Counted from the first letter of the stretch, positions 12,627 to 45,822 are shown. The stretch: 64,000 nt of DNA from Marinitoga aeolica (GCF_029910535.1 NZ_CP069362.1:620001-684000), one strand, 5' to 3'. The notes: a model not told the origin generated them from the letters alone. A program made the numbers and translations.

Positions 12627-13982
12627 TTATAAACTATTTATAACTTTTTTTGATATTTCATTGTGTTTTTCTATTAATCTTGGTAATTCCTCATCAAGAA
12701 TTTTTCCATCTTTAACTCTTATTTCCCCATTAATAACATTCAAATCAACTTGTTTTCCATCACACATTAAAACAGCTCCAAGTGGATCATCAAGTCCTCC
12801 AGCAAATTCTAATCTGTTTAAATTAAATCCAATAAAATCAGCAGCTTTACCAATTTCTATACTTCCAATATAATCATCCATTCTTAGAACTCTTGCTCCA
12901 CCTATTGTTCCCATTTTTAATGCTTCTTTTACAGTTAAAGCATCCGCACCGTATTTTACCCTTTGCAATAATAATGCGTTCCTTATTTCTGCAATCATAT
13001 TATTAGTATCATTACTTGCGCTTCCATCTACAGCTATCCCTATTCTTATTTTATCCTTCATTTTTGTTACTGGTGCAATCCCAGAACCTAAACGCATGTT
13101 TGAAGAAGGACAATGTGCCATACCTACATCATTTTTTGCCAATTTTTCAATATCTGAATCGCTCAACCAAACAAGATGAGCAAACCAAGCTCTCGGATTA
13201 AGCCAACCTAATTCTTCCATATAATCAACAGGTTTTTTGCCAAATTTTTCTAAACAATACTTATCTTCATCTAATGTTTCAGCTACATGCGTATGCATTA
13301 ATACATCGTATTCTTCTGCTATTTTCACAGTTTCTTTCATAAGATCTGCTGTTACAGAAAATGGAGAACACGGAGCTAATGCTATTCTTAACATTGAATA
13401 TTTTTCAGGGTTATGATATTTTTCTATAACTCTAATACTCTCTTTTATTATTTCTTTTTCAGTTTGAACAACACTATCTGGAGGTAATCCACCATCTTTT
13501 TTACTCATAGACATACTTCCACGCGTTGGATGAAATCTTATTCCCGTTCTCATTGCTCCTTCTATTTCTGCATCTATAGCTTCATTTAATCCATATGGAT
13601 ATAAATATAAATGATCAGTTGTAGTAGTAACCCCTGTTTTCATCATTTCATAATTAGCAATAATAGAACTAATATAAAATCCTTCCCTATCAATAAATTT
13701 CCATCTTTCATATAAAAAAACTAACCAATCAAATAGTTTTGCATTTTGAGCTCCTTTAACATTTCTTGTTAATGATTGATATAAATGATGATGTGTATTT
13801 ACAAACCCTGGCATTATAAGCATATCTTTACAATTAATTATTTCATCTGCTTCTAAATCAGGATCACCTGTACCCATATCCTTAATTACATTATCCTCAA
13901 TATAAATATATGCATTTTCAAGTTCCGTATCTTTATTATCAAAAGTTGCAAGATATGATATGTTTTTAAATAACTTTTTCAT
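12627..13982 (-). CDS. 8-oxoguanine-deaminase-like amidohydrolase
   Basis: A 451-aa zinc amidohydrolase. PGFVNTHHHLYQSLTRN gives the HxH metal site with the Leu-Tyr-Gln pattern of the 8-oxoguanine deaminase / AtzB branch, and HPTRGSMSMSKKDGGLPPD is a near-diagnostic block of the bacterial 8-oxoguanine deaminases. HTHVAETLDE and the late AVDGSASND supply further ligands. The reaction would be 8-oxoguanine to urate plus ammonia; related enzymes act on other purines or triazines. Its start overlaps the preceding PLP gene stop by 4 nt. Confidence 0.88.
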   Translation of the reverse strand: MKKLFKNISYLATFDNKDTELENAYIYIEDNVIKDMGTGDPDLEADEIINCKDMLIMPGFVNTHHHLYQSLTRNVKGAQNAKLFDWLVFLYERWKFIDREGFYISSIIANYEMMKTGVTTTTDHLYLYPYGLNEAIDAEIEGAMRTGIRFHPTRGSMSMSKKDGGLPPDSVVQTEKEIIKESIRVIEKYHNPEKYSMLRIALAPCSPFSVTADLMKETVKIAEEYDVLMHTHVAETLDEDKYCLEKFGKKPVDYMEELGWLNPRAWFAHLVWLSDSDIEKLAKNDVGMAHCPSSNMRLGSGIAPVTKMKDKIRIGIAVDGSASNDTNNMIAEIRNALLLQRVKYGADALTVKEALKMGTIGGARVLRMDDYIGSIEIGKAADFIGFNLNRLEFAGGLDDPLGAVLMCDGKQVDLNVINGEIRVKDGKILDEELPRLIEKHNEISKKVINSL

Positions 13983-15394
13983 TCGTCAAGCCACACCTTC
14001 CTTAAAGTTGCTTTATGTTCCTCTCTATATTGTTCTAGCATTTTATCCATTTCCTCTACTTTTCTTTGATGCTCTTTCCAATATTTTTGTTCTTTTTGTG
14101 CATTCAGTTCTTCTAATGTTTTTCCCTGTTGTTCAATCCATGTATAATATTTTAAGTTGTGCCATCTTTCTCTATTATATTTATCTCCTTCAAATATGCC
14201 TGATGTTTCCTGATAAAGGAATATTCTCTCTACTCTTGATTTTGCTTCTGCTCTATCAAGTTTTCCATATGTTTTTGTCATTTGTTCCATAACAGAATGA
14301 TATCTATCTATATTGTCAGTAGCAACCACAAAAATATTATCATCAGATTTTAAATTATAGAATTTAGCCATTTTTATAGCCCCAATTACATTCGCAACAC
14401 CTGAAATACCAAATTTATCTGAAATATATTCTACCATTTCTGGATCAACAAATTCTTTTAAGAATTTTTTACCTTCTTCGTCTGTTAAAACTTGAAGCAT
14501 TTTTTTACTGTCAATGTCATCTACTAACACAACCGCATCATTATTCATAACGTTATGAATCCATGTAACGTGTTTATCTCCAATTCCTTGAATATCATGT
14601 CCTCCATAACCATTTAATGAAATTGTTGGACATTGAACTGGTTCCATAGCTACAACCTTAGTCTCAGGAAATTCTTGTTTTACTCTATCTCCACTTGCAA
14701 TTGTTCCTGCAGACCCTACACCCAACACTATTGCAGCGATTCTTTCATTACCAATATGATATCTTTTAACAGTTTCTATCATTGTGTTTCCAGTTACATA
14801 ATAATGGAATCTATAATTTCCAAAAGCTTCGAATTGATTCAAAATCCTTATGTGTTCCGGATCTGATTCATATAGTTCTTTTGATTTATCATAAATTTCT
14901 TTTACATTTGATTCACAACCAGGTGTTGGAATAACCTCTGATCCATACTTTCTTATTATTTCAAATCTTTCTTTACTCATTTCTTCTGGCAATAATACAA
15001 GAGAATCATAATTCATTCTTGAACTAACAAATGCACCACCTATACCATAATTTCCTGTTGACGGCCATACTAATTTGTGAATAGATGGATCAACTTCGTG
15101 TGTAATAGTCTTTTCCATTAATACAGAATATGTTGCTCCCACTTTATGACTTCCAGATGGAAAATCTTTTGCATATAACACGATAATATTTGCCTCTACA
15201 CCTGTTAATTCCTTAGGCATAACAAAATACCTTATTTCATTATTCTCATCCTTCCAGGATATGTTAAATAAATTAATTGGATGAAGAGGATCTTTCTCTT
15301 TCATTTCAATAGCTCTTTGTCTGATTTCTGGATCAATTTTTTCTGGATGTAACATCTCTTCATAAGTTGGTCCTACTATTGGCACTCTTTTCAT
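13979..15394 (-). CDS. fold-type II PLP-dependent enzyme (cysteine synthase/ammonia-lyase-like)
   Basis: A 471-aa tryptophan-synthase-beta superfamily protein. The PLP lysine lies in FPSGSHKVGATYSV (about residue 100), a phosphate/substrate loop follows (WPSTGNYGIGG), and a PLP-phosphate glycine loop appears at VLGVGSAGTIASGD. The long charged C-terminal helix (EEMDKMLEQYREEHKATLRK) is unusual for plain cysteine synthases. Homologues are often found next to purine-degradation genes; a beta-elimination or ammonia-lyase activity is likely but unproven. It sits between the oxidoreductase and the deaminases in one operon, coupled downstream by ATGA. Confidence 0.8.
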   Translation of the reverse strand: MKRVPIVGPTYEEMLHPEKIDPEIRQRAIEMKEKDPLHPINLFNISWKDENNEIRYFVMPKELTGVEANIIVLYAKDFPSGSHKVGATYSVLMEKTITHEVDPSIHKLVWPSTGNYGIGGAFVSSRMNYDSLVLLPEEMSKERFEIIRKYGSEVIPTPGCESNVKEIYDKSKELYESDPEHIRILNQFEAFGNYRFHYYVTGNTMIETVKRYHIGNERIAAIVLGVGSAGTIASGDRVKQEFPETKVVAMEPVQCPTISLNGYGGHDIQGIGDKHVTWIHNVMNNDAVVLVDDIDSKKMLQVLTDEEGKKFLKEFVDPEMVEYISDKFGISGVANVIGAIKMAKFYNLKSDDNIFVVATDNIDRYHSVMEQMTKTYGKLDRAEAKSRVERIFLYQETSGIFEGDKYNRERWHNLKYYTWIEQQGKTLEELNAQKEQKYWKEHQRKVEEMDKMLEQYREEHKATLRKVWLDE

Positions 15395-15423
15395 TCTATC
15401 AATACCCCCCTGAGTTTAGATTT

Positions 15424-17679
15424 TTATATTATGTCTTCCATGGAAATTGGAATCTTTATTATCCTCTTTTTTATAGCATTAGAAACAGCATTTGCTATAG
15501 ATGGCGGAGCAGTCATTAAAGATGGTTCTCCTATTCCTTTTGCACCAAAAGGTCCATATGGAAATTCTTCTTCAACAACATCAGGAATTATTTCTGGAAC
15601 ATCTTTTATTGTTGGAATTATATAATTGTTGAAATTATCTGTAATTATCTTCCCATTTTTCTGTTTTATTTCTTCCATTATGGCATGGCCCATTCCCTGA
15701 ACAGCACCACCCTGTATCTGTCCTATAACTCCATCATAATTTATTGCTTTACCTATATCATGCGATATCCACATTTTTTTCACATCAACCTTGCCTGTTA
15801 AAGTATCTACTTCAACTAAAGTTAATTGAGTCGAATATGTATAAGTTACATATGCTTCTCCAACACCATTTTCCATATCAAAATGCAATTTAGGAGATCT
15901 ATACCATCCTGATTCATTTAACTTTACATTTGAATCATTACACATTTTCGCAATTTCATCAAATGAATATTCTTTATCATTTATTTTGTATACTCCTAAA
16001 TTTATTTTTATATCTTCTGGTTTAACTTTAAATTTATTACATAAAAACTCTATAATATTATTTTTAATTTTTTCAGCTGCATCTTTAGCAGCATTTCCAC
16101 TAAATACTGTAGTTCTTGAAGCAACTGTTGGGCCACTATCCTGAACTATAAATGTGTCTGTTTGCAATACATTTATTTTATCTAGTTTCTGACCTAATAT
16201 TTCAGAAACTATCATTGAAATCGCAGTTTTTGAACCCTGACCTATTTCTGTTCCACCAAACATAACGTTTATTGTACCATCTGGGAACACATGAACCTCA
16301 GAATTAGAAGCATCCAAATGTTGCCCACCTGCCCCTAAACTTACTCCATATATTATATGTGACCATCCCAAACCTCGTTTTTTTATATTATTATTTTTAT
16401 TAAATTCCTCGACTTCTTTTTTCAACTGTTCATAATTTGATAATTTTTTTATATTTTCAAGTGTTTTTTTAGCCCCAACAGAAAATTCTAATTTATGTCC
16501 TGTTGCTGTTTCGCCGCCAACTTCAAGTGCATTTTTATATCGAATTTCCCATGGATCAATGCCTAATTTTTCCGCAGCTTCATCCATTACAGATTCAATA
16601 GCAAATAATACCTGTGGTGATCCAAATCCTCTAAATGCACCACATGGAACTTTATTTGTATATACACCATATACATCAACATACACATTTGGAACTTTAT
16701 ATGCACCAGCAGAATGCGTGAGAGTTCTATACATAACTATTGGTGACAATGTTGAGTATGCTCCCATATCAAGATATGTTTCGCTTTTTAACCCTATTAT
16801 TGTTCCATCTTTTTTAAAAGCTACTTTATATTTCGATTTTGAAGGATGTCTTTTACTTGTTTCCTTTATATCATCTTCTCTTTTATATATAATTTTTACA
16901 GGTCTTTTTGTCAAATAAGACAATAATGCTGCTTTTGATGCAATATAAGATGGAACATCTTCTTTACCTCCAAATCCCCCTCCCGTTTCCATCTGTATTA
17001 CATCAACTTTATTAAATGGAATATCTAAAATTTCAGATACATCTTCCTGAACATAAAATGGGCATTGCATTGATCCATAAATTCTCATGATTTCTCCATC
17101 AAAATTTGCAACTGCACCCTGAGTTTCAAGATATGCCTGCTCTTGATAATCTGTTCTAAATTCTCTTTCTATTATCAAATCAGCTATTTCAAAACTATTT
17201 TCTACTTCTCCTCTTCTGATTTTTTTATGAAATGCTATATTAGTTTCTTCATTATTTACCTTTATTTCATCTTTTATAGCTTCCTCTATAGTTAATACAG
17301 CAGGCAATTCCTCAACTTCAAACTTTACTTTTGATATAGCTTCTTCTACAGCTTCTTTAGTTTCACCAGCAATTAATGCTATCGCATCGTGCTCAAATCT
17401 AATTTTTTCTCCTACTGGAATTAAAAACCACATATCTTTCGTTAATACCCCAAATTTATTTGTTCCAGGAACATCTTCATATGTAGCCACTTTTACAATT
17501 CCCGGAACTTTCTCTGCTTCAGATATATCTATGCTCTTTAAAATACCGTGTGATATATTTGAATATACCACTCCTGCATATAGCATTCTATCAAAATATA
17601 TATCAGGCGTATATTTGGCTTCACCATAAGCCTTTTCTTTCCCTTCTATTCTCTTTACAATTTTTCCTACAACTTTCAT
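15424..17679 (-). CDS. molybdopterin-binding large subunit of a xanthine-dehydrogenase-type hydroxylase
   Basis: A 751-aa large subunit of the xanthine oxidase family, carrying the molybdenum cofactor. Seen: GGGFGGKE and GAFRGFGSPQ (conserved Arg contacting the substrate), and the C-terminal GAKGIGEPSL, whose Glu (about residue 718) is the catalytic base. The FAD and 2Fe-2S subunits that normally complete the enzyme are not adjacent or in this window. GGGGGG precedes the ATG. It is first in the cluster, so hydroxylation of a purine would feed the deaminases that follow. It could instead act on another heterocycle or aldehyde. Confidence 0.9.
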   Translation of the reverse strand: MKVVGKIVKRIEGKEKAYGEAKYTPDIYFDRMLYAGVVYSNISHGILKSIDISEAEKVPGIVKVATYEDVPGTNKFGVLTKDMWFLIPVGEKIRFEHDAIALIAGETKEAVEEAISKVKFEVEELPAVLTIEEAIKDEIKVNNEETNIAFHKKIRRGEVENSFEIADLIIEREFRTDYQEQAYLETQGAVANFDGEIMRIYGSMQCPFYVQEDVSEILDIPFNKVDVIQMETGGGFGGKEDVPSYIASKAALLSYLTKRPVKIIYKREDDIKETSKRHPSKSKYKVAFKKDGTIIGLKSETYLDMGAYSTLSPIVMYRTLTHSAGAYKVPNVYVDVYGVYTNKVPCGAFRGFGSPQVLFAIESVMDEAAEKLGIDPWEIRYKNALEVGGETATGHKLEFSVGAKKTLENIKKLSNYEQLKKEVEEFNKNNNIKKRGLGWSHIIYGVSLGAGGQHLDASNSEVHVFPDGTINVMFGGTEIGQGSKTAISMIVSEILGQKLDKINVLQTDTFIVQDSGPTVASRTTVFSGNAAKDAAEKIKNNIIEFLCNKFKVKPEDIKINLGVYKINDKEYSFDEIAKMCNDSNVKLNESGWYRSPKLHFDMENGVGEAYVTYTYSTQLTLVEVDTLTGKVDVKKMWISHDIGKAINYDGVIGQIQGGAVQGMGHAIMEEIKQKNGKIITDNFNNYIIPTIKDVPEIIPDVVEEEFPYGPFGAKGIGEPSLMTAPPSIANAVSNAIKKRIIKIPISMEDII

Positions 17680-29011: not shown

Positions 29012-29030
29012 AAATCATAATATCATATTA

Positions 29031-29131
29031 TTGACAAACTCTATATTTAAATACAAAAATTTATAAATCCTCGAAAATTCACAAAGATTTTCTCATATTA
29101 TTTTTTTTATTTTGACAACAGTCTAAAAGGC
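29031..29131 (-). repeat. internally deleted copy of the foldback repeat (copy D)
   Basis: About 100 bp match the two ends of the repeat at 56837-57075 in reverse orientation. TTGACAAACTC, TTAAATACAAA and AAATCCTCGAAAATTC stand on one side, CTCATATTATTTTTTT and TTGACAACAGTCTAAAAGG on the other. The central hairpin region is missing, with the ends directly joined. Confidence 0.65.
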
Positions 29132-30193
29132 CATACATTATTAAGGTCTTTTTTGGAATGTATATGTGCTTTTTCAACATTAAGTATCACTACAATTTTA
29201 TTTTCAGAGTGATTAAAATTCTAAAATTGTTCTTATTCGTCAAAAAGAGAAGTGGAGTTATTATAAATATATTTTGTCATATCAAATTAAAAATAATTTT
29301 TAATAGTTAAAATTTATATAAATAAAAATTTATAATGATTTTTTTAATAAAATATTAACCATAATAACTTATCACATGATAATATAATCATGTAAATTTA
29401 TTAAATTTAAGAAACAATAATTTTACTGTATTTTTACTTTGATGTTATTTTTTTTTTTTTTTTTTTTTGATAAAATTACTATGAATAAGTGAAAATATTA
29501 ACTTTAAACAATTAATAATAAATGTATAATAAACATGATAACAATAACTTCCATAATTATTTAAATCTCATCATATTTAATGTAAAATGGAATTTATAAT
29601 TAAAGGAAAAGTTATTAATATTTATAATTTCAGAAATAATAAAATTTCCAATAAACTTTTGAACAGTCTTTTAAATGATATGCCGTCTCTCTATAATAAT
29701 TTTTATACTAATTAAGAACTTTTTCTGATATTAAAAACATTAGAGGAAGTGAAATTAAAATAATTTATTAAAACATATAATTTAAAGAAAAACAAGAACA
29801 TTTTAAATATTAAAATTTCATCAAATTATAATGTGAAAGTAGCGCTAATATTTTTGAAAATAAGCAGATTCTTAAACATAATATACTTATAGAAAATGCC
29901 TTTAATAGTATCTTCAAAAAACACTAAATTTATTTTATAAATATTGATATAATCAAAAACTAAAAATACAGTTTTTAGATTAAAATTCTAACTGTGAATA
30001 TATAAAAACTTTTATATTTCTTGAAAACAAAAACACTTTATCTGGTAATATTCAACTTATATGTTAGTTAGTCAATTTTTTTATAATTTTTTACATATAA
30101 AATTGACAGAATTTCTATAATTAAACAATAATTTTGGATATATACTTTCTAAAGATCGTTTCATATTATTAATTATACGAGGGGGGTGATTAT
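29132..30193. other. 1.06-kb AT-rich spacer with no convincing gene
   Basis: Stop codons are frequent in all frames. It contains a 21-T homopolymer (29448-29468) and a 42-codon open stretch from ATG 29587 to TAA 29715 without a ribosome binding site, followed by more coding-like scraps in other frames around 29716-29890. This looks like decayed coding sequence. A TTGACA lies at 30103-30108, but no -10 sits at a proper distance. No known family was recognised. Confidence 0.5.
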
Positions 30194-30292
30194 ATGTTAA
30201 AAGGGTTCTACTCAATATCAAAAGAACCTATTATTGCTTCAGAATGCTATTTTTGTCAAGGAGCAATTGTTGTATGCGCAGTTACTTGGTAA
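30194..30292 (+). CDS. RiPP-type precursor peptide 1 (Cys/Trp-rich, 32 aa)
   Basis: ATG after the strong site GAGGGGGGTGAT. The peptide begins MLKGFYSISKEP and ends CYFCQGAIVVCAVTW. It has three cysteines (18, 21, 28), a C-terminal Trp, and a hydrophobic core. It is 32 residues, the same length as its neighbour, and matches it at both ends. The short conserved N-terminus is the likely leader that the RRE domain of the downstream radical SAM enzyme binds; the Cys-rich part is the likely modified core. No Gly-Gly leader cleavage site is present. Which bonds are formed is not predictable from sequence alone. Confidence 0.85.
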   Translation: MLKGFYSISKEPIIASECYFCQGAIVVCAVTW

Positions 30293-30313
30293 CTATGAAG
30301 GAGGGAAGAAGTT

Positions 30314-30412
30314 ATGTTAAAAGGATTTTATTCTGTAAATAAAAGTAACACCCCATTATTGTTATGTGCATTTTGCCAAAGTGCAATAGTTGTTTGTGGT
30401 GTTGTATGGTAA
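30314..30412 (+). CDS. RiPP-type precursor peptide 2 (Cys/Trp-rich, 32 aa)
   Basis: Starts 21 nt after the first peptide gene with site GGAGGGAAG. It begins MLKGFYSVNKSN and ends CAFCQSAIVVCGVVW. Cysteines at 18, 21 and 28 and Trp 32 align exactly with peptide 1, while residues 11-17 differ freely (EPIIASE against SNTPLLL). Such conservation at both ends around a variable middle argues for purifying selection on leader and core. A two-component bacteriocin or a duplicated substrate are both possible. A hairpin follows before the modification gene. Confidence 0.85.
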   Translation: MLKGFYSVNKSNTPLLLCAFCQSAIVVCGVVW

Positions 30413-30452
30413 TAGAGTTTTTAGAAATTTTATATTTTGATTAAAGTAAAAT

Positions 30453-30502
30453 GAAGCACCTTCTAAATATTTATATAAAATGATTTTTTGTGAAGGTGCT
30501 TC
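30453..30502 (+). terminator. intercistronic hairpin between precursor and maturase genes
   Basis: GAAGCACCTT (30453-30462) is complementary to AAGGTGCTTC (30493-30502), with a 30-nt AT-rich loop containing TTTTTT. It would reduce read-through or protect the upstream transcript, giving more precursor than enzyme, as is common in RiPP operons. Confidence 0.55.
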
Positions 30503-30570
30503 TATGTATTATAGAAAGCATTTTATAGAATTCTTTAAAATTTGAAAATAATGTTAAAAAGGGGGATATT

Positions 30571-31944
30571 ATGAAAAATGATATATTACTATTATCACCA
30601 AAAATTGATTTAATAAAAACTAATAAGGGTGCCATATTAAAGTATATTGGTGGAACTAATTTAATCTTTTTAACCCATACAGAAGCATATTTTTTGTCGT
30701 TATGTGATGGAACCAAAAATGTTGAAGAAATAATATTAAATATTTCTGAATTATATGATGTGCCATATAATATAGTTAAAAATGATCTAACCGATTTAAT
30801 AAATAAATATTTAAAAGCTAATATAATTAGTATTTTACCTCAAAAATTAAATAAGAGATTATCTAGATATAAAAAAGATGAATTTATATTTATCCCTGAA
30901 ATGGATAATCCTGTAATAATACCTAAAAAAATAAATAGCATAGGTTTTTCATTAACTGATTATTGCCCTTTAAATTGCGACTATTGCTTTGGTAAATTTA
31001 ATCCAAATACTTCTAGAACATATTTACCTACAGAAAAAGTTATTTCTATAATAAAAGAAGCTGAAGAATTAGGGAAAGTTGAATATGTATCATTATCCGG
31101 TGGTGATCCTATTGCGCATCCTGGATTATCTGAAATAATACGTTTTTTAGAAAAAAGAAGAATAAATTACGAACTTTCAACAAAAGGAACATTGTTAACT
31201 AAAAATAAAATTATTGAATTAGTTGAAGCTGGTTTAAGAAACATTCAAATTAGTATAGATACATGGGATCCTCAAAAATGGGCGAAATTAACTGGACTAA
31301 ATAAAGATGAATTTGAAAAAGTAATAGAAGCATTTTATTGGTGCAATGTGTATAATATAAAGACTCGAGGAAGAATAACTTTAACAAAGGAAAATTTATA
31401 TGATTTAGAAGAACTATTTAAAAATCTTCCAATTTTAGGTGTTGAAGAAATAAGAATTGTTCCTTTATTACCTATTGGAAGGGGAAACGTCTCTGAAACC
31501 CTTGAGAAGGACGATTTAAATTATGCTATAACTTTAGGAAAAAAATATGAAAAAATATATAATAAAAATATTAGAGTTGTTTTTGGATTGCAAACATATA
31601 CTTTAAACATAACTTGTGGTGGAGCAAAAATCTCTATGCAGATTTGTGCCGATGGGGAAGTTGTATTATGTGATGTTGTGGAAGGGATAGACAAAAAGGC
31701 TTTTAGTTATGGAAATATATATAAAAATACAATAAAAGAAATATGGTTTTCTCAAAAAGCTAACGAATTTAGATATAATGGGAATATTGAAGATTGCATT
31801 GATTGTGAAAAATTTAGTATGTGCAATGGTGGTTGTAGAGCAGTATCATATAAATATTATGATGATTTTTATAAACATGATCCAAGATGCTTAAAGTTTG
31901 CGAATAAAAAAGAAGGTGAATTATTCATATGGCAGAAAAAATAA
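30571..31944 (+). CDS. radical SAM/SPASM peptide maturase with N-terminal PqqD-like RRE
   Basis: A 457-aa protein. Residues ~1-90 resemble a PqqD-like peptide recognition domain (TEAYFLSLCDGTKNVEEI, then helices ending IINKYLK-like). The radical SAM cluster motif is CPLNCDYC (CxxxCxxC) near residue 133, followed by LSGGDPIAHP, the SAM-binding GGD/E motif. The C-terminal SPASM region has CGGAKISMQICADGEVVLCDV and CIDCEKFSMCNGGCRAV plus a last Cys (DPRC), giving enough cysteines for auxiliary 4Fe-4S clusters. Such enzymes form thioether or C-C crosslinks in peptides. GGGGG precedes the ATG. The gene overlaps the ABC exporter gene by 16 nt. Confidence 0.92.
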   Translation: MKNDILLLSPKIDLIKTNKGAILKYIGGTNLIFLTHTEAYFLSLCDGTKNVEEIILNISELYDVPYNIVKNDLTDLINKYLKANIISILPQKLNKRLSRYKKDEFIFIPEMDNPVIIPKKINSIGFSLTDYCPLNCDYCFGKFNPNTSRTYLPTEKVISIIKEAEELGKVEYVSLSGGDPIAHPGLSEIIRFLEKRRINYELSTKGTLLTKNKIIELVEAGLRNIQISIDTWDPQKWAKLTGLNKDEFEKVIEAFYWCNVYNIKTRGRITLTKENLYDLEELFKNLPILGVEEIRIVPLLPIGRGNVSETLEKDDLNYAITLGKKYEKIYNKNIRVVFGLQTYTLNITCGGAKISMQICADGEVVLCDVVEGIDKKAFSYGNIYKNTIKEIWFSQKANEFRYNGNIEDCIDCEKFSMCNGGCRAVSYKYYDDFYKHDPRCLKFANKKEGELFIWQKK

Positions 31945-33608
31945 AAAATGAAAAATTAGAAAAAAGAGAAATAAACCATTTTTTGTTTGGATTGTTTAAA
32001 AAGTATTGGAAAAGACAGGTAATCGCCATTATTTTTATAAGTTTAATGGCATTATCAATATTGATTTTTCCAATGTTGATAAAATATACAATAGATACAG
32101 TAATACCATCTAAAAATATAAATATTTTGTTTAGATACATATTATTGATGATAGCAACTCTTTTTGGAATTTCTTTAATAACATATTTTGGAGAAGTTAT
32201 TTTTGAATTTAATGCTTTAAAAGCAAAAAAAGATATTAGAAAGGAAATAATTATAAAACTAACAAGATTGCCATATGAATTTTTCATGAAGATAAATTCT
32301 GGAGAATTAATTTCAAAATTAATGTCTGATCTTGAAATGGTTGGTGTTGTAGTTTCTCAGGTATTTCCGATTTTTGCATTATCAGTTTTGCAAATAACAG
32401 GAATAATAATAATGCTTTTTTATTTAAATTGGAAATTAGCATTAGTACCAATTATTTTAACAACATGTTCTTTGTTAATTTTAAAATTAATTAATAAAAA
32501 AGCAGAAAAACTTTCTATTCATGAAAGAGAAGTATTTGGAGAAATATCGAATATGTTAATTGACATTATAAATAACATGAAAACAATTAAATTAATGTCA
32601 TCTAATATGTGGATATCTAATATGATAGATAATTATCTTGATAATCACTATAAAATAGGCAAAAAATTTACTAAATGGATAAAATTAACAGGTGCATTAG
32701 GGAATTCTATAAACGGCATGATAACAGTAGGTGTATTCAGTTATGGCGGTTATTTAATAATAAAAAATGAAATAACATTGGGTACATTAATTGCTTTTTG
32801 GACATATATACAGACATTAATGAATCCATTGCAATTATTGATGAAGGTAAATACTGTATTAAGAAGTTCCTGGGGAGGTATTAAAAGAGTTGTTGAAATA
32901 ACAAAATATGAAGAAGAAAATATTCCAGAACTCAAAGAAGAAAACAATATAAAATCTATAAAACTTGAAAATATTGGATTCAGCTTTGATAATAAAAAGA
33001 TTTTAGATTCAATAGAATTAAGTTTAGAAAAAGGTAAAATCACAGGAATAATTGGGGAAAACGGTGCTGGAAAGACTACGTTATTTAATATTTTAATGGG
33101 TTTATATAAAGCTAATAAAGGAAATATAAAATTTAATGATACTGAAAATGCAAATATAAGCCTTTTAAGAAAAAATATTGGATTTGTTGAACAAGAACCT
33201 GAGTTATTTAAAAATTGTACTATAAAAGAAAATATATTAATGGGAAGAAAAATATCAAAAGAAAAATTAAAAGAAATTTTAGAGGTAACCGGAATAAAGA
33301 GAATAGCATCAAAATTTGAAAAAGGGATAGATGAAAAAATTAAAGACATAAAATTATCTGGAGGTCAAAAACAAATAATTGCTATAGCCAGAGCTTTAAT
33401 AGATGATCCACAAATTATATTACTCGATGAGTTTACTTCTGCAATGGATTCAAAAAATGAAGAATTAATTCATAATATTTTGATAAAACTAAAAGAAAAA
33501 GGAAAAATAATTGGGATAATAACTCATAAAGATTCTACTCTAAAAATATGTGATGAAATATATGAAATTAAAAAAGGGATATTATTAAAAAATAAAAGCA
33601 GAGTTTAA
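31929..33608 (+). CDS. ABC exporter, fused membrane and ATPase domains (peptide export or immunity)
   Basis: A 559-aa half-transporter. Six helices lie in residues ~30-310; the ATPase part has Walker A GENGAGKTTLFN, signature LSGGQKQ, Walker B IILLDEFTSAMD and the H-loop ITHKDS. There is no N-terminal C39 peptidase, so the leader must be cut by another protease or kept. The first ~20 residues are very charged. It would work as a homodimer in the inner membrane. Overlap with the maturase gene and the terminator after it define the end of the RiPP operon. Confidence 0.92.
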   Translation: MAEKIKNEKLEKREINHFLFGLFKKYWKRQVIAIIFISLMALSILIFPMLIKYTIDTVIPSKNINILFRYILLMIATLFGISLITYFGEVIFEFNALKAKKDIRKEIIIKLTRLPYEFFMKINSGELISKLMSDLEMVGVVVSQVFPIFALSVLQITGIIIMLFYLNWKLALVPIILTTCSLLILKLINKKAEKLSIHEREVFGEISNMLIDIINNMKTIKLMSSNMWISNMIDNYLDNHYKIGKKFTKWIKLTGALGNSINGMITVGVFSYGGYLIIKNEITLGTLIAFWTYIQTLMNPLQLLMKVNTVLRSSWGGIKRVVEITKYEEENIPELKEENNIKSIKLENIGFSFDNKKILDSIELSLEKGKITGIIGENGAGKTTLFNILMGLYKANKGNIKFNDTENANISLLRKNIGFVEQEPELFKNCTIKENILMGRKISKEKLKEILEVTGIKRIASKFEKGIDEKIKDIKLSGGQKQIIAIARALIDDPQIILLDEFTSAMDSKNEELIHNILIKLKEKGKIIGIITHKDSTLKICDEIYEIKKGILLKNKSRV

Positions 33609-33664: not shown

Positions 33665-33713
33665 TCCCCTCTTCTTGGTATGGTAAGCAAAACCAAAAAG
33701 AGGGGTATTTTTT
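33665..33713. terminator. terminator between the RiPP operon and asnS
   Basis: CCCCTCTT and GGT pair with ACC and AAGAGGGG, followed by a T run on plus and preceded by an A run that serves the convergent asnS transcript. Confidence 0.75.
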
Positions 33714-33746
33714 TATATTTATATTCAAAATATTTAGATTATTTAA

Positions 33747-43427: not shown

Positions 43428-44516
43428 ATGTATTATGGTGATAGTTTATTAAGAAAATTTCTAAAATCTATTATAGCACCTTATATTATAAAAAAATATA
43501 ATATTAAAGTTATTGGAAAAATTCCCAAACCACCATTTTTATTTATAGCAAATCATACGCATATTTTAGATGGTTTTTTTATTCAATCAGTAATTCCATA
43601 TCCTATTAGTTTTGTAATGGCTGGAGGAACATATTATAATAAATGGGTTTATCCTTTTTTCAAACATTTCAAATTTATTCCAAAACAAAAAGGTGTTCCA
43701 GATATAAAAACCGTGAGAGATATTTTTAAAGTTTTAAAAAATGGTGGAATAGTAGGACTTTTTCCAGAAGGTTCTACTACGTGGTCTGGAAATTATCAAC
43801 CTGTACCGTCTGGAACAGATAAATTATTAGATAAAATAAAGGTACCAATTTTAGCTGCAAGAATTCATGGAGGTTATTTGTCTAAACCAAGATGGGCAAA
43901 AAAGGAAAGAAAAGGTAATATAATCATTGAATTAAAAACTTTTAATGATTCAGCAGCTTTAGAATATATTAAATATAATGAATGGGATTGGCAAGAAAAA
44001 AATAAATGGAAGTATTCTGGTAATAAAAAAGCGGAAGGTTTAGAAAGAATTATATGGTTTTGCGATAAATGCAATTCATTTAATTCAATAAAAGCTAAAG
44101 GTAATGTTGCAAAATGTACTAATTGTTCCAGGGAGTATGCTGTTGATGATTATGGGTATATAAACGGAAAAAGAATAGATAATATTATTTATACTCAAAA
44201 AGAAAAATTGATAAATTATATGAATAATAACAAATATATGGTTTTAGATATAGGAACTTTGGAAGAGAGAGACTTATTTAAACCCAAATTGTTGAATAAA
44301 GAAAAAGGTAATATAGAAGTTTTCGACTATGGAATAAAATTCAATAAAAATATATTTGAATTTAAAAAAATAAAAAATGGCGTATGTTTTGTATCAACTA
44401 TTTTTGAGTTTATATATGAAGAAAAGGTCTATAGAATTAAATCGGAAAATTATAGTTACTTGTTATACAATATCTACAAAATAAGGAGTGGAAAAAATGT
44501 ACATATCGATGGTTGA
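43428..44516 (+). CDS. PlsC-like acyltransferase with C-terminal zinc ribbon
   Basis: A 362-aa protein. The acyltransferase motif I HTHILD (HX4D) is at ~43-48 in ANHTHILDGFF, and motif III appears as LFPEGSTTWSG. After ~200 residues comes CDKCNSFNSIKAKGNVAKC with TNCS, a four-cysteine zinc ribbon, and then ~120 residues of unknown type. Likely acylates a lysophospholipid or related acceptor at the membrane face; the ribbon is unusual for the family. The gltS-like gene starts within its 3' end. Confidence 0.82.
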   Translation: MYYGDSLLRKFLKSIIAPYIIKKYNIKVIGKIPKPPFLFIANHTHILDGFFIQSVIPYPISFVMAGGTYYNKWVYPFFKHFKFIPKQKGVPDIKTVRDIFKVLKNGGIVGLFPEGSTTWSGNYQPVPSGTDKLLDKIKVPILAARIHGGYLSKPRWAKKERKGNIIIELKTFNDSAALEYIKYNEWDWQEKNKWKYSGNKKAEGLERIIWFCDKCNSFNSIKAKGNVAKCTNCSREYAVDDYGYINGKRIDNIIYTQKEKLINYMNNNKYMVLDIGTLEERDLFKPKLLNKEKGNIEVFDYGIKFNKNIFEFKKIKNGVCFVSTIFEFIYEEKVYRIKSENYSYLLYNIYKIRSGKNVHIDG

Positions 44517-45822
44517 TGATTTCTTTTGGATTTCCCTTTTCTTTGGTATTGCAATATTATTAAAAAGATTTATTCCAGCACTACAAAAATTTGTCATTCC
44601 GAATTCAATACTTGCAGGATTTATTGGTTTTTTAATGGGGCCTAACCTTCTCCATTTAATAGATTTAGATATTGATGGATTAGGAAGAATTATTTATCAT
44701 TTAATGGCAATAGGATTTATAGCTTTAGCTCTTAGAACTGTTAAAAGCAGAGGAAAATATGGAAAAGCTGGATTTATAATTGTTTCTACATATTTATTTC
44801 AAGGAATTTTAGGAGTATCTATAGCTAGTTTGTTTTATTTATTTGACAAAAAAACACCTATTCCTATAGGTTATATAGTTCCATTAGGTTTTGGCCAAGG
44901 GCCAGGTCAGGCATTTTCTATAGGTTCCCAATGGCAATTATTAGGTTTAAATAACGGAAGTGCTGTTGGATTAGCTATTGCAGCTGCAGGATTTGGCTGG
45001 GCAACGATTGGTGGTTTAGTGATATTAAACATATTATTAGCTAAATGGAAAAAAGATAAGTCAAAGGTTATAGTTCACAAAAAGGAATTAGTCGTAAAGG
45101 ATTACGAATTCTCTGATATGGATGGCTTAACTATACAATTTGTTTTAATTGGTATAGTCTATACAATTACATATTTTTTAATAAAAATACTTACAGAATA
45201 TTTAAATACGTTAGGTAATATAGGCCATACATTTGGAACAGTTTTATGGGGCTTTCATTTTGTTTTTGGAGCTATTGTAGCTATGATATTTAGAAGTGTA
45301 TATGTTAAATTAAGAGAAAAAAATATAGCTAAAGAAAATTATATAAATAATTTTTTATTACAAAGAATTTCCGGTGCAGTTTTTGATTTTATGGTTGCAG
45401 CATCAATTAGCGCAGTATCTTTAGCAAGAATTAGAGAATATTTTTGGCCAATATTCTTTATCACATTAACTGCTGGCGTATTAACTTATTTCTATGTAAT
45501 GTTATTAACTAAAAAAGTTATTGTGAAAAATGAAGTAGAGAATAGAATTGCATTTTTTGGAATGTTAACAGGAACAATTTCTACAGCTATGGCGTTATTA
45601 AGAGAAGTTGATCCTGCTTTAGAAACAGGAGCTGCAGAAAATTTGATTTTTGGAAGTGGAATCTCTCTAATGATAGGATTTCCATTAATTGCTATATTAA
45701 ACTTACCAGCTTTGTATTTAACATCTGGAAAAATTATATACAATTTCTATGGTTTAGGATTAATGATAGCCTATAATCTATTATTATTCTTAATTTTCTT
45801 TAGAAATCCAAAAAAAGTTTAA
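44497..45822 (+). CDS. GltS-like sodium/glutamate (ESS family) symporter
   Basis: A 441-aa protein with about 12 helices in two halves. VIPNSILAGFIGFLMGPN and GFGQGPGQAFSIGSQWQ match the glutamate:sodium symporter pattern (GxGxG region), and the second half repeats it loosely (GMLTGTISTAMALLREVDP). Probably imports glutamate or another anion with sodium; substrate not certain. The ATG at 44497 has AAGGAG upstream; a GTG nine bases earlier is adjacent to that site. It overlaps the acyltransferase gene by 20 nt. Confidence 0.8.
   Translation: MYISMVDDFFWISLFFGIAILLKRFIPALQKFVIPNSILAGFIGFLMGPNLLHLIDLDIDGLGRIIYHLMAIGFIALALRTVKSRGKYGKAGFIIVSTYLFQGILGVSIASLFYLFDKKTPIPIGYIVPLGFGQGPGQAFSIGSQWQLLGLNNGSAVGLAIAAAGFGWATIGGLVILNILLAKWKKDKSKVIVHKKELVVKDYEFSDMDGLTIQFVLIGIVYTITYFLIKILTEYLNTLGNIGHTFGTVLWGFHFVFGAIVAMIFRSVYVKLREKNIAKENYINNFLLQRISGAVFDFMVAASISAVSLARIREYFWPIFFITLTAGVLTYFYVMLLTKKVIVKNEVENRIAFFGMLTGTISTAMALLREVDPALETGAAENLIFGSGISLMIGFPLIAILNLPALYLTSGKIIYNFYGLGLMIAYNLLLFLIFFRNPKKV

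What the first reader, a model, noticed from the sequence alone, without database searches (positions are those of the whole stretch)
30194..33608. Compact RiPP cluster with twin 32-residue Cys/Trp peptides, RRE-SPASM enzyme and peptidase-less exporter
Seen: two tandem tiny genes with strong ribosome binding sites encode peptides with the same start (MLKGFYS) and the same end pattern CxFCQxAIVVCxVxW, but a free middle. They are followed by a radical SAM enzyme with a PqqD-like N-terminus and a Cys-rich SPASM tail, then an ABC exporter without C39 peptidase. Known: RRE-SPASM enzymes install thioether or carbon-carbon crosslinks in RiPPs such as sactipeptides and ranthipeptides. The cysteine spacing 2 and 6 with terminal Trp fits no class that I can name. 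Inference: a two-peptide bacteriocin-like product, or a metal- or membrane-active peptide, from a Thermotogota member.
Basis: partly seen in the sequence, partly recalled or inferred. Interest (0 to 1): 0.88.

Follow-up and report, generated by a model that had tools for sequence, protein, structure and literature searches.

The report
Cys/Trp peptide RiPP cassette in Thermotogota
A small bacterial gene cassette makes one or two 32-residue peptides that an enzyme probably cross-links near the end before they are pumped out; it is a new peptide family found only in Thermotogota, and several relatives sit next to what looks like an undescribed peptide-signalling switch that accompanies many such clusters across the phylum.

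Summary
Two 32-aa genes with strong ribosome sites, an RRE-radical SAM-SPASM enzyme and a peptidase-less ABC exporter lie at 30194-33608. The peptides are real genes: orthologs accompany the same enzyme in seven further Thermotogota genomes, with a diverged one in an eighth, and pN/pS is 0.08-0.43. No library names the peptides. The enzyme's best structural matches are RiPP cross-linkers, SuiB first.

The TPR family occurs in 54 of 103 Thermotogota genomes. A pro-peptide precedes 30 of 56 TPR genes against 0 of 344 other genes; radical SAM or ABC genes lie on its divergent side in 25 of 39 cases against 1 of 39. This resembles Rgg/SHP control of RaS-RiPPs in streptococci, with the HTH after the TPRs. 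The window's own copy lacks the switch.

Verdict: a new RiPP precursor family, probably part of a quorum-sensing-coupled repertoire. Chemistry and signalling are inferred.

The parts
30103..30132 (+). promoter-like site (TTGACA-18-AATAAT, 11 of 12) upstream of the peptides
   Evidence: consensus match only, promoter-like sites are not clearly enriched over shuffles in this region
30179..30188 (+). ribosome binding site of peptide A (gaggggggtg)
   Evidence: read directly
30194..30292 (+). precursor peptide A, 32 aa, MLKGFYSISKEPIIASECYFCQGAIVVCAVTW
   Evidence: ortholog in G043 91% identical, pN/pS 0.10
30298..30307 (+). ribosome binding site of peptide B (aaggagggaa)
   Evidence: read directly
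30314..30412 (+). precursor peptide B, 32 aa, MLKGFYSVNKSNTPLLLCAFCQSAIVVCGVVW
   Evidence: orthologs in G043, G044, G042, pN/pS 0.08-0.40
30453..30502 (+). hairpin (11-bp arms gaagcaccttc / gaaggtgcttc) between precursors and enzyme gene; no T-run; probably keeps precursor mRNA above enzyme mRNA
   Evidence: z -4.3; hairpin at the same place, with other sequence, in G042, G043, G085, G054, not in G025
30571..31944 (+). radical SAM RiPP maturase: N-terminal PqqD-like RRE, CPLNCDYC, complete 7-Cys SPASM motif
31929..33608 (+). ABC exporter (TM domain + ATPase), no C39 peptidase; overlaps the enzyme gene by 16 bp
   Evidence: 71% identical to the exporter of the G042 cassette
33666..33718 (+). 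probable terminator (cccctctt ... aagagggg + T run) after the exporter
   Evidence: read directly; its loop is longer than the terminator scan allows

Best explanation
This is a RiPP biosynthetic cassette. Peptides A and B are precursors. Their conserved N-terminus (MLxG[FY]Y) is probably the recognition stretch bound by the RRE of the radical SAM/SPASM enzyme. The enzyme then cross-links the conserved C-terminal block C21-x6-C28-x3-W32, most likely with C21 and/or C28 as one partner and a hydrophobic residue or W32 as the other. The product leaves through the ABC exporter; no protease is encoded, so any trimming is done by host proteases. A hairpin between precursor and enzyme genes probably keeps precursor in excess. 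In related loci the cassette is switched by a divergent TPR/HTH regulator that reads a Sec-exported pro-peptide, an RRNPP-like quorum sensor, so that the product is made at high cell density. The window's copy has lost or never had that switch. Shown: gene content, conservation, selection, hairpin, domain content, and association of regulator, pro-peptide and clusters. Inferred: RRE binding, cross-link chemistry, export of the product, signalling.
For: Domains; complete rSAM and 7-Cys SPASM motifs. Foldseek of the enzyme model: SuiB 1.1e-16, then SkfB, CteB and PqqE, all peptide cross-linking RiPP maturases; model quality only moderate, pLDDT 68. Peptide-enzyme linkage in Thermotogota. Purifying selection. 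Core alignment. Hairpin in 5 of 6 loci. Divergent TPR gene at the cassettes of G042, G044, G085 and G024; Sec-type pro-peptide in G042 and G044. Pro-peptide before 30 of 56 TPR genes vs 0 of 344 others. rSAM/ABC on the divergent side 25 of 39 vs 1 of 39. Cro/C1 HTH plus TPR in the family; TPR model pLDDT 90.8. Operator-like element with 11 hits in 103 genomes, all in this genus; the two orthologous cassettes G042 and G044 have it between TPR gene and pro-peptide.
Against: No mass data. Which residues are joined cannot be read from sequence; in the most diverged relative (G024) C28 is missing. The window and G043 cassettes have neither TPR gene, pro-peptide nor operator-like element, and no TPR remnant is detectable (41 of 200 shuffles score as high). 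TPR receptors bind many things, and no ligand contact was tested. Only two of the cassettes of this peptide family have the pro-peptide.
Confidence: 0.7

Rival explanations
1. Thioether RiPP (sactipeptide- or ranthipeptide-like): C21 and C28 sulfurs are joined to alpha, beta or gamma carbons of residues in the AIVV block. (A sub-option of the best explanation that fixes the chemistry.)
For: Conserved Cys pair around a short hydrophobic block; SkfB and CteB, both thioether enzymes, among the top structural matches; 7-Cys SPASM.
Against: Spacing matches no curated family; the invariant terminal Trp is unexplained; C28 is absent in the diverged G024 peptide.
Confidence: 0.42
2. SuiB-like carbon-carbon or Cys-Trp macrocycle: W32 is joined to C28 or a neighbour (i, i+4, the same spacing as K-x3-W in streptide) or to C21. 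(Also a sub-option that fixes the chemistry.)
For: SuiB is the best structural match over the whole length; W32 and C21 are invariant in all 11 peptides.
Against: Lys of streptide replaced by Cys, so chemistry must differ; sequence identity to SuiB about 18%; the closest solved sequence is PqqE.
Confidence: 0.3
3. Mycofactocin-like C-terminal processing: oxidative decarboxylation of the terminal aromatic residue after C-[AG]-[VI], giving a redox cofactor.
For: C-terminus ends in C-G-V-x-W, like C-G-V-Y of MftA as recalled; mycofact_rSAM is among the NCBIfam hits.
Against: That hit is far below its cut-off (82.5 of 265 bits) and other families score higher; no peptidase, dehydrogenase or glycosyltransferase partners directly beside the cassette; an exporter is present instead.
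Confidence: 0.1
4. Unmodified or disulfide peptides; the radical SAM enzyme has another substrate.
For: No direct evidence of modification.
Against: Strict linkage of peptide and enzyme genes; RRE domain; closest folds are peptide cross-linkers.
Confidence: 0.08
5. The TPR/HTH protein and Sec pro-peptide are a general regulator plus a toxin, envelope peptide or lipoprotein remnant rather than a signalling pair.
For: HTH lies after, not before, the TPR domain; receptor length of 473-628 aa in the set mostly exceeds the published 250-500 aa signature.
Against: Small Sec-type peptide, adjacency within 95-380 bp and TPR fit the published RRNPP signature; pro-peptide C-termini are conserved inside the genus (NPQIQ-x-E).
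Confidence: 0.3

Closest known systems
Rgg/SHP-controlled RaS-RiPP clusters of streptococci (PMC13361665)
   Same: radical SAM RiPP cluster with exporter next to a TPR-type peptide receptor and a small pro-pheromone; many clusters per genome
   Different: Different phylum; receptor has HTH after the TPRs and is ~530 aa; Sec-type pro-peptide instead of SHP; core motif is not one of the 16 subfamily names listed there; window copy lacks the switch
Streptide / KxxxW system with SuiB
   Same: RRE-rSAM-SPASM fold, best structural match; Trp four residues after a conserved residue
   Different: Cys in place of Lys, two or three Cys, Trp is the last residue; no sequence-level family match
Sactipeptides and ranthipeptides (SkfB, CteB, PapB)
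   Same: Cys-containing core, RRE-rSAM-SPASM maturase, exporter
   Different: Cys spacing and terminal Trp; NCBIfam models for StsB, CefB and PapB hit far below cut-off
Mycofactocin (MftA/MftC)
   Same: C-terminal C-G-V-aromatic-like ending (recalled), RRE plus SPASM enzyme
   Different: No other mft genes beside it; a residue stands before the terminal aromatic; exporter present
TM1316 locus of Thermotoga maritima (Frock et al. 2013, doi 10.1128/AEM.01627-13; title read, content recalled)
   Same: short peptide, radical SAM enzyme and ABC genes; the similar locus L096 has a divergent TPR gene and Sec-type peptide
   Different: Peptide (MQKMPKPVVPNDYLNPGKGCGGAGLVCGWCG in L096) shows no shared core and the enzyme is not orthologous. 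That L096 corresponds to TM1315-TM1319 is inferred, not checked

Membership tests
RRE-rSAM-SPASM RiPP maturase systems | PqqD-like RRE, CxxxCxxC and SPASM in the enzyme | tested here: met
RRE-rSAM-SPASM RiPP maturase systems | short precursor gene conserved beside the enzyme | tested here: met
RRE-rSAM-SPASM RiPP maturase systems | enzyme modifies the precursor | not testable with these tools
   needs co-expression and mass spectrometry
Sactipeptide or ranthipeptide | precursor or maturase matches a curated family | tested here: not met
   peptides 0 hits; StsB, CefB, PapB models below cut-off
Sactipeptide or ranthipeptide | Cys thioether to backbone or side-chain carbon | not testable with these tools
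   chemistry
Streptide (KxxxW) | K-x3-W core | tested here: not met
   C-x3-W
Mycofactocin | MftC-level score and mft partner genes | tested here: not met
   82.5 of 265 bits; neighbouring ORFs were judged by reading, no partner seen
RRNPP quorum sensing (regulator of related cassettes) | small Sec-type pro-peptide of 10-100 aa directly adjacent, -60 to 400 bp | tested here: met
   for the G042 and G044 cassettes, by hydropathy, no SignalP; signature. Not met for the window copy
RRNPP quorum sensing (regulator of related cassettes) | receptor with TPRs, 250-500 aa | tested here: inconclusive
   TPR met; length 473-628 aa, mostly above the limit
RRNPP quorum sensing (regulator of related cassettes) | N-terminal HTH in DNA-binding members | tested here: not met
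   Cro/C1 HTH at about 285-335, after the TPRs; Foldseek finds RapI and NprR only weakly, E about 0.1
Two-peptide bacteriocin | two different peptides always encoded together | tested here: not met
   single peptide in G042, G085, G054

The most novel reading that the evidence does not exclude
Thermotogota carry a phylum-wide, previously undescribed peptide quorum-sensing family (TPR receptor with a Cro/C1 HTH behind the TPRs plus a divergent Sec-exported pro-peptide), present in many copies per genome, which runs a repertoire of RiPP clusters; this cassette is one of them and makes a new Cys/Trp cross-linked RiPP class with its own chemistry.
Probability: 0.45. Interest if true: 0.85.

Novelty: new variant of a known kind. 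Interest (0 to 1): 0.68.

Why it matters
It adds a RiPP precursor family absent from the libraries searched, with a maturase closest in fold to SuiB but with Cys where streptide has Lys, so its chemistry is worth determining. It also exposes a likely peptide-signalling system outside the Bacillota, attached to RiPP clusters as Rgg/SHP is in streptococci. That would offer an explanation for stationary-phase induction of the TM1316 locus in Thermotoga, and makes cell-cell signalling in Thermotogota directly testable with synthetic peptides.

Tried and rejected
A decayed TPR gene in the empty stretch 29012-30193: the best DNA match is reached by 41 of 200 shuffles, so not claimed. Relatives outside Thermotogota: a pattern scan of ~85,000 species gave three hits; one is the uncultured Petrotoga MAG (G054), the other two lie across unrelated genes with no start codon context or radical SAM beside them and are taken as chance. 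Viral contigs: none. Plasmids: only PqqE and other remote radical SAM proteins. The search for related loci with the enzyme found nothing, but it only reaches close relatives. TM1317-like enzyme as ortholog: 18% identity over part, rejected. Rfam: nothing. Twin peptides as an obligatory pair: rejected.

Full report
Observation. Peptide A is MLKGFYSISKEPIIASECYFCQGAIVVCAVTW, peptide B MLKGFYSVNKSNTPLLLCAFCQSAIVVCGVVW. The enzyme has PqqD, Radical_SAM and SPASM domains; the exporter has a transmembrane and an ATPase domain and no C39 peptidase. Cysteines follow the full pattern C132-x3-C-x2-C and C349-x12-G-x4-C367 ... C409-x2-C-x5-C-x3-C422 ... C440. Neither peptide matches Pfam at its cut-off, or NCBIfam at all.

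Conservation. In 103 Thermotogota genomes, ten (the window's own included) have a match to the enzyme at E <= 1e-25; one of them, G052, is a different enzyme type with another peptide. Peptides of this family accompany the enzyme in three other genomes of the genus (in G044 on separate contigs), in two of another family (G025, G029), in G085 of a third family and in a Petrotoga MAG (G054). A diverged ...PWCHTAIVIW peptide precedes the G024 enzyme. A DNA pattern for the C-terminus hits 12 places in these genomes, control 0; eleven hits are beside the enzyme and the twelfth is near a contig end. pN/pS is 0.08-0.43. Alignment of 11 peptides leaves M1, Y6, C21, I25 and W32 invariant, and L2, G4, A24, V26 and C28 nearly so. 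The CxF cysteine is missing in G085 and G054, so the shared core is C-x6-C-x3-W-stop. Numbers follow peptide A.

Anatomy. A hairpin lies between precursors and enzyme in the window (z -4.3), G042 (-5.9), G043 (-4.3), G085 (-3.0) and G054 (-4.3), with different sequences, but not in G025. A good -35/-10 pair ends 62 bp upstream of peptide A, though such matches are not clearly enriched in the region. Enzyme and exporter overlap by 16 bp; in G085 they form one 980-codon frame.

Enzyme. Sequence neighbours in the PDB are PqqE, then MoaA, SuiB and CteB. The AlphaFold model is moderate (pLDDT 68, weakest at the N-terminus and in loops). Its best Foldseek matches are SuiB, SkfB, CteB and PqqE, all RiPP peptide-modifying enzymes. 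The bond type stays open; rivals are listed.

Surroundings of the relatives. The cassettes of G042, G044, G085 and G024 are flanked by a divergent ~530-aa protein; in G085 it is split by IS21-like genes. The family occurs in 54 of 103 genomes, with 18 matched places in G042 and 13 in the window's genome, some of them fragments of one gene. The model is confident (pLDDT 90.8, pTM 0.90): N-terminal TPR-like helices, then a segment that Pfam identifies in 11 of 43 members as a Cro/C1 HTH (best 4.2e-8) at about 285-335. Foldseek finds only generic TPR proteins, with RapI and NprR among weak hits.

Pro-peptide. Upstream of the TPR gene and divergent from it often lies a 40-57 aa ORF of the form MKK + hydrophobic stretch + polar tail. 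It is present in 30 of 56 TPR loci and beside 0 of 344 other ORFs of the same loci. The criteria were framed after seeing examples and paralogs are not independent, so the p-value is only indicative. Within the genus the tails end alike (TDSxNPQIQxEFSE). G042 and G044 carry one between the TPR gene and the RiPP peptide. Radical SAM or ABC genes stand on the divergent side of 25 of 39 TPR genes and on the other side of 1 (by sequence motif). An element TGATAAANARNGGATTTTTATTTT occurs 11 times in the phylum, only in this genus; in 8 cases a pro-peptide starts within about 115 bp of it, the orthologous cassettes of G042 and G044 included.

Window copy. It has none of these: no TPR gene, pro-peptide or element, and the 1.2 kb before the peptides is 17% GC and without a convincing ORF. 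No TPR remnant is detectable. So the switch can be claimed for relatives, not for the window.

Comparison. Published RRNPP systems are defined by a small Sec-secreted pro-peptide, a TPR receptor of 250-500 aa and adjacency, with an N-terminal HTH where one exists, and are described for Firmicutes. The one library paper that holds both RRNPP and Thermotog- is a phage-plasmid review, judged unrelated from its title and abstract. The Thermotogota pair meets the pro-peptide and adjacency criteria but not the HTH position, and mostly exceeds the length. Rgg/SHP control of radical SAM RiPPs in streptococci is the nearest functional analogue. An early RiPP survey listed one cluster for nine Thermotogae.

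Verdict. A real, conserved RiPP cassette with a new precursor family; chemistry unknown; the wider TPR/pro-peptide system is the more surprising result and needs experiments.

Noticed in passing
L111, L113, L115, L116 (G000:C1:532000-541000, 1731000-1747000, 2373000-2389000, 2391000-2401000): The window's genome holds at least six further RiPP-like clusters with other small Cys peptides, each headed by a TPR gene and a Sec-type pro-peptide.
   Followed up: partly
L019:4973-5125 (G085) and L025:4258-4520 (G054): In two cassettes from different genera the enzyme's RRE is broken by a frameshift at a run of 8-9 T; sequencing error or slippage-based switching.
   Followed up: no
L019:5125-8067 (G085): Radical SAM enzyme and ABC exporter form one continuous 980-codon frame.
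   Followed up: no
window 29012-30193: 1.2 kb at 17% GC without a convincing ORF in front of the cassette; function unknown.
   Followed up: partly
L096:6609-8836 and 13851-16490 (G091): This genome has two TPR genes, each followed by HicAB-like toxin-antitoxin ORFs, one heading a TM1316-like locus.
   Followed up: partly
L106:7170-9494 (G042): A cluster with six tandem small Cys-rich precursor-like ORFs (MKWIE... type) around one enzyme gene.
   Followed up: no
L019:9853-12001 and window 43428-45822: The same acyltransferase-like and GltS-like gene pair lies 2 kb from the G085 cassette and 10 kb from the window's cassette; may be chance.
   Followed up: no
L024:989-3917 (G024): Most diverged enzyme has a longer precursor ending PWCHTAIVIW and an MFS-like transporter instead of an ABC exporter.
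   Followed up: partly
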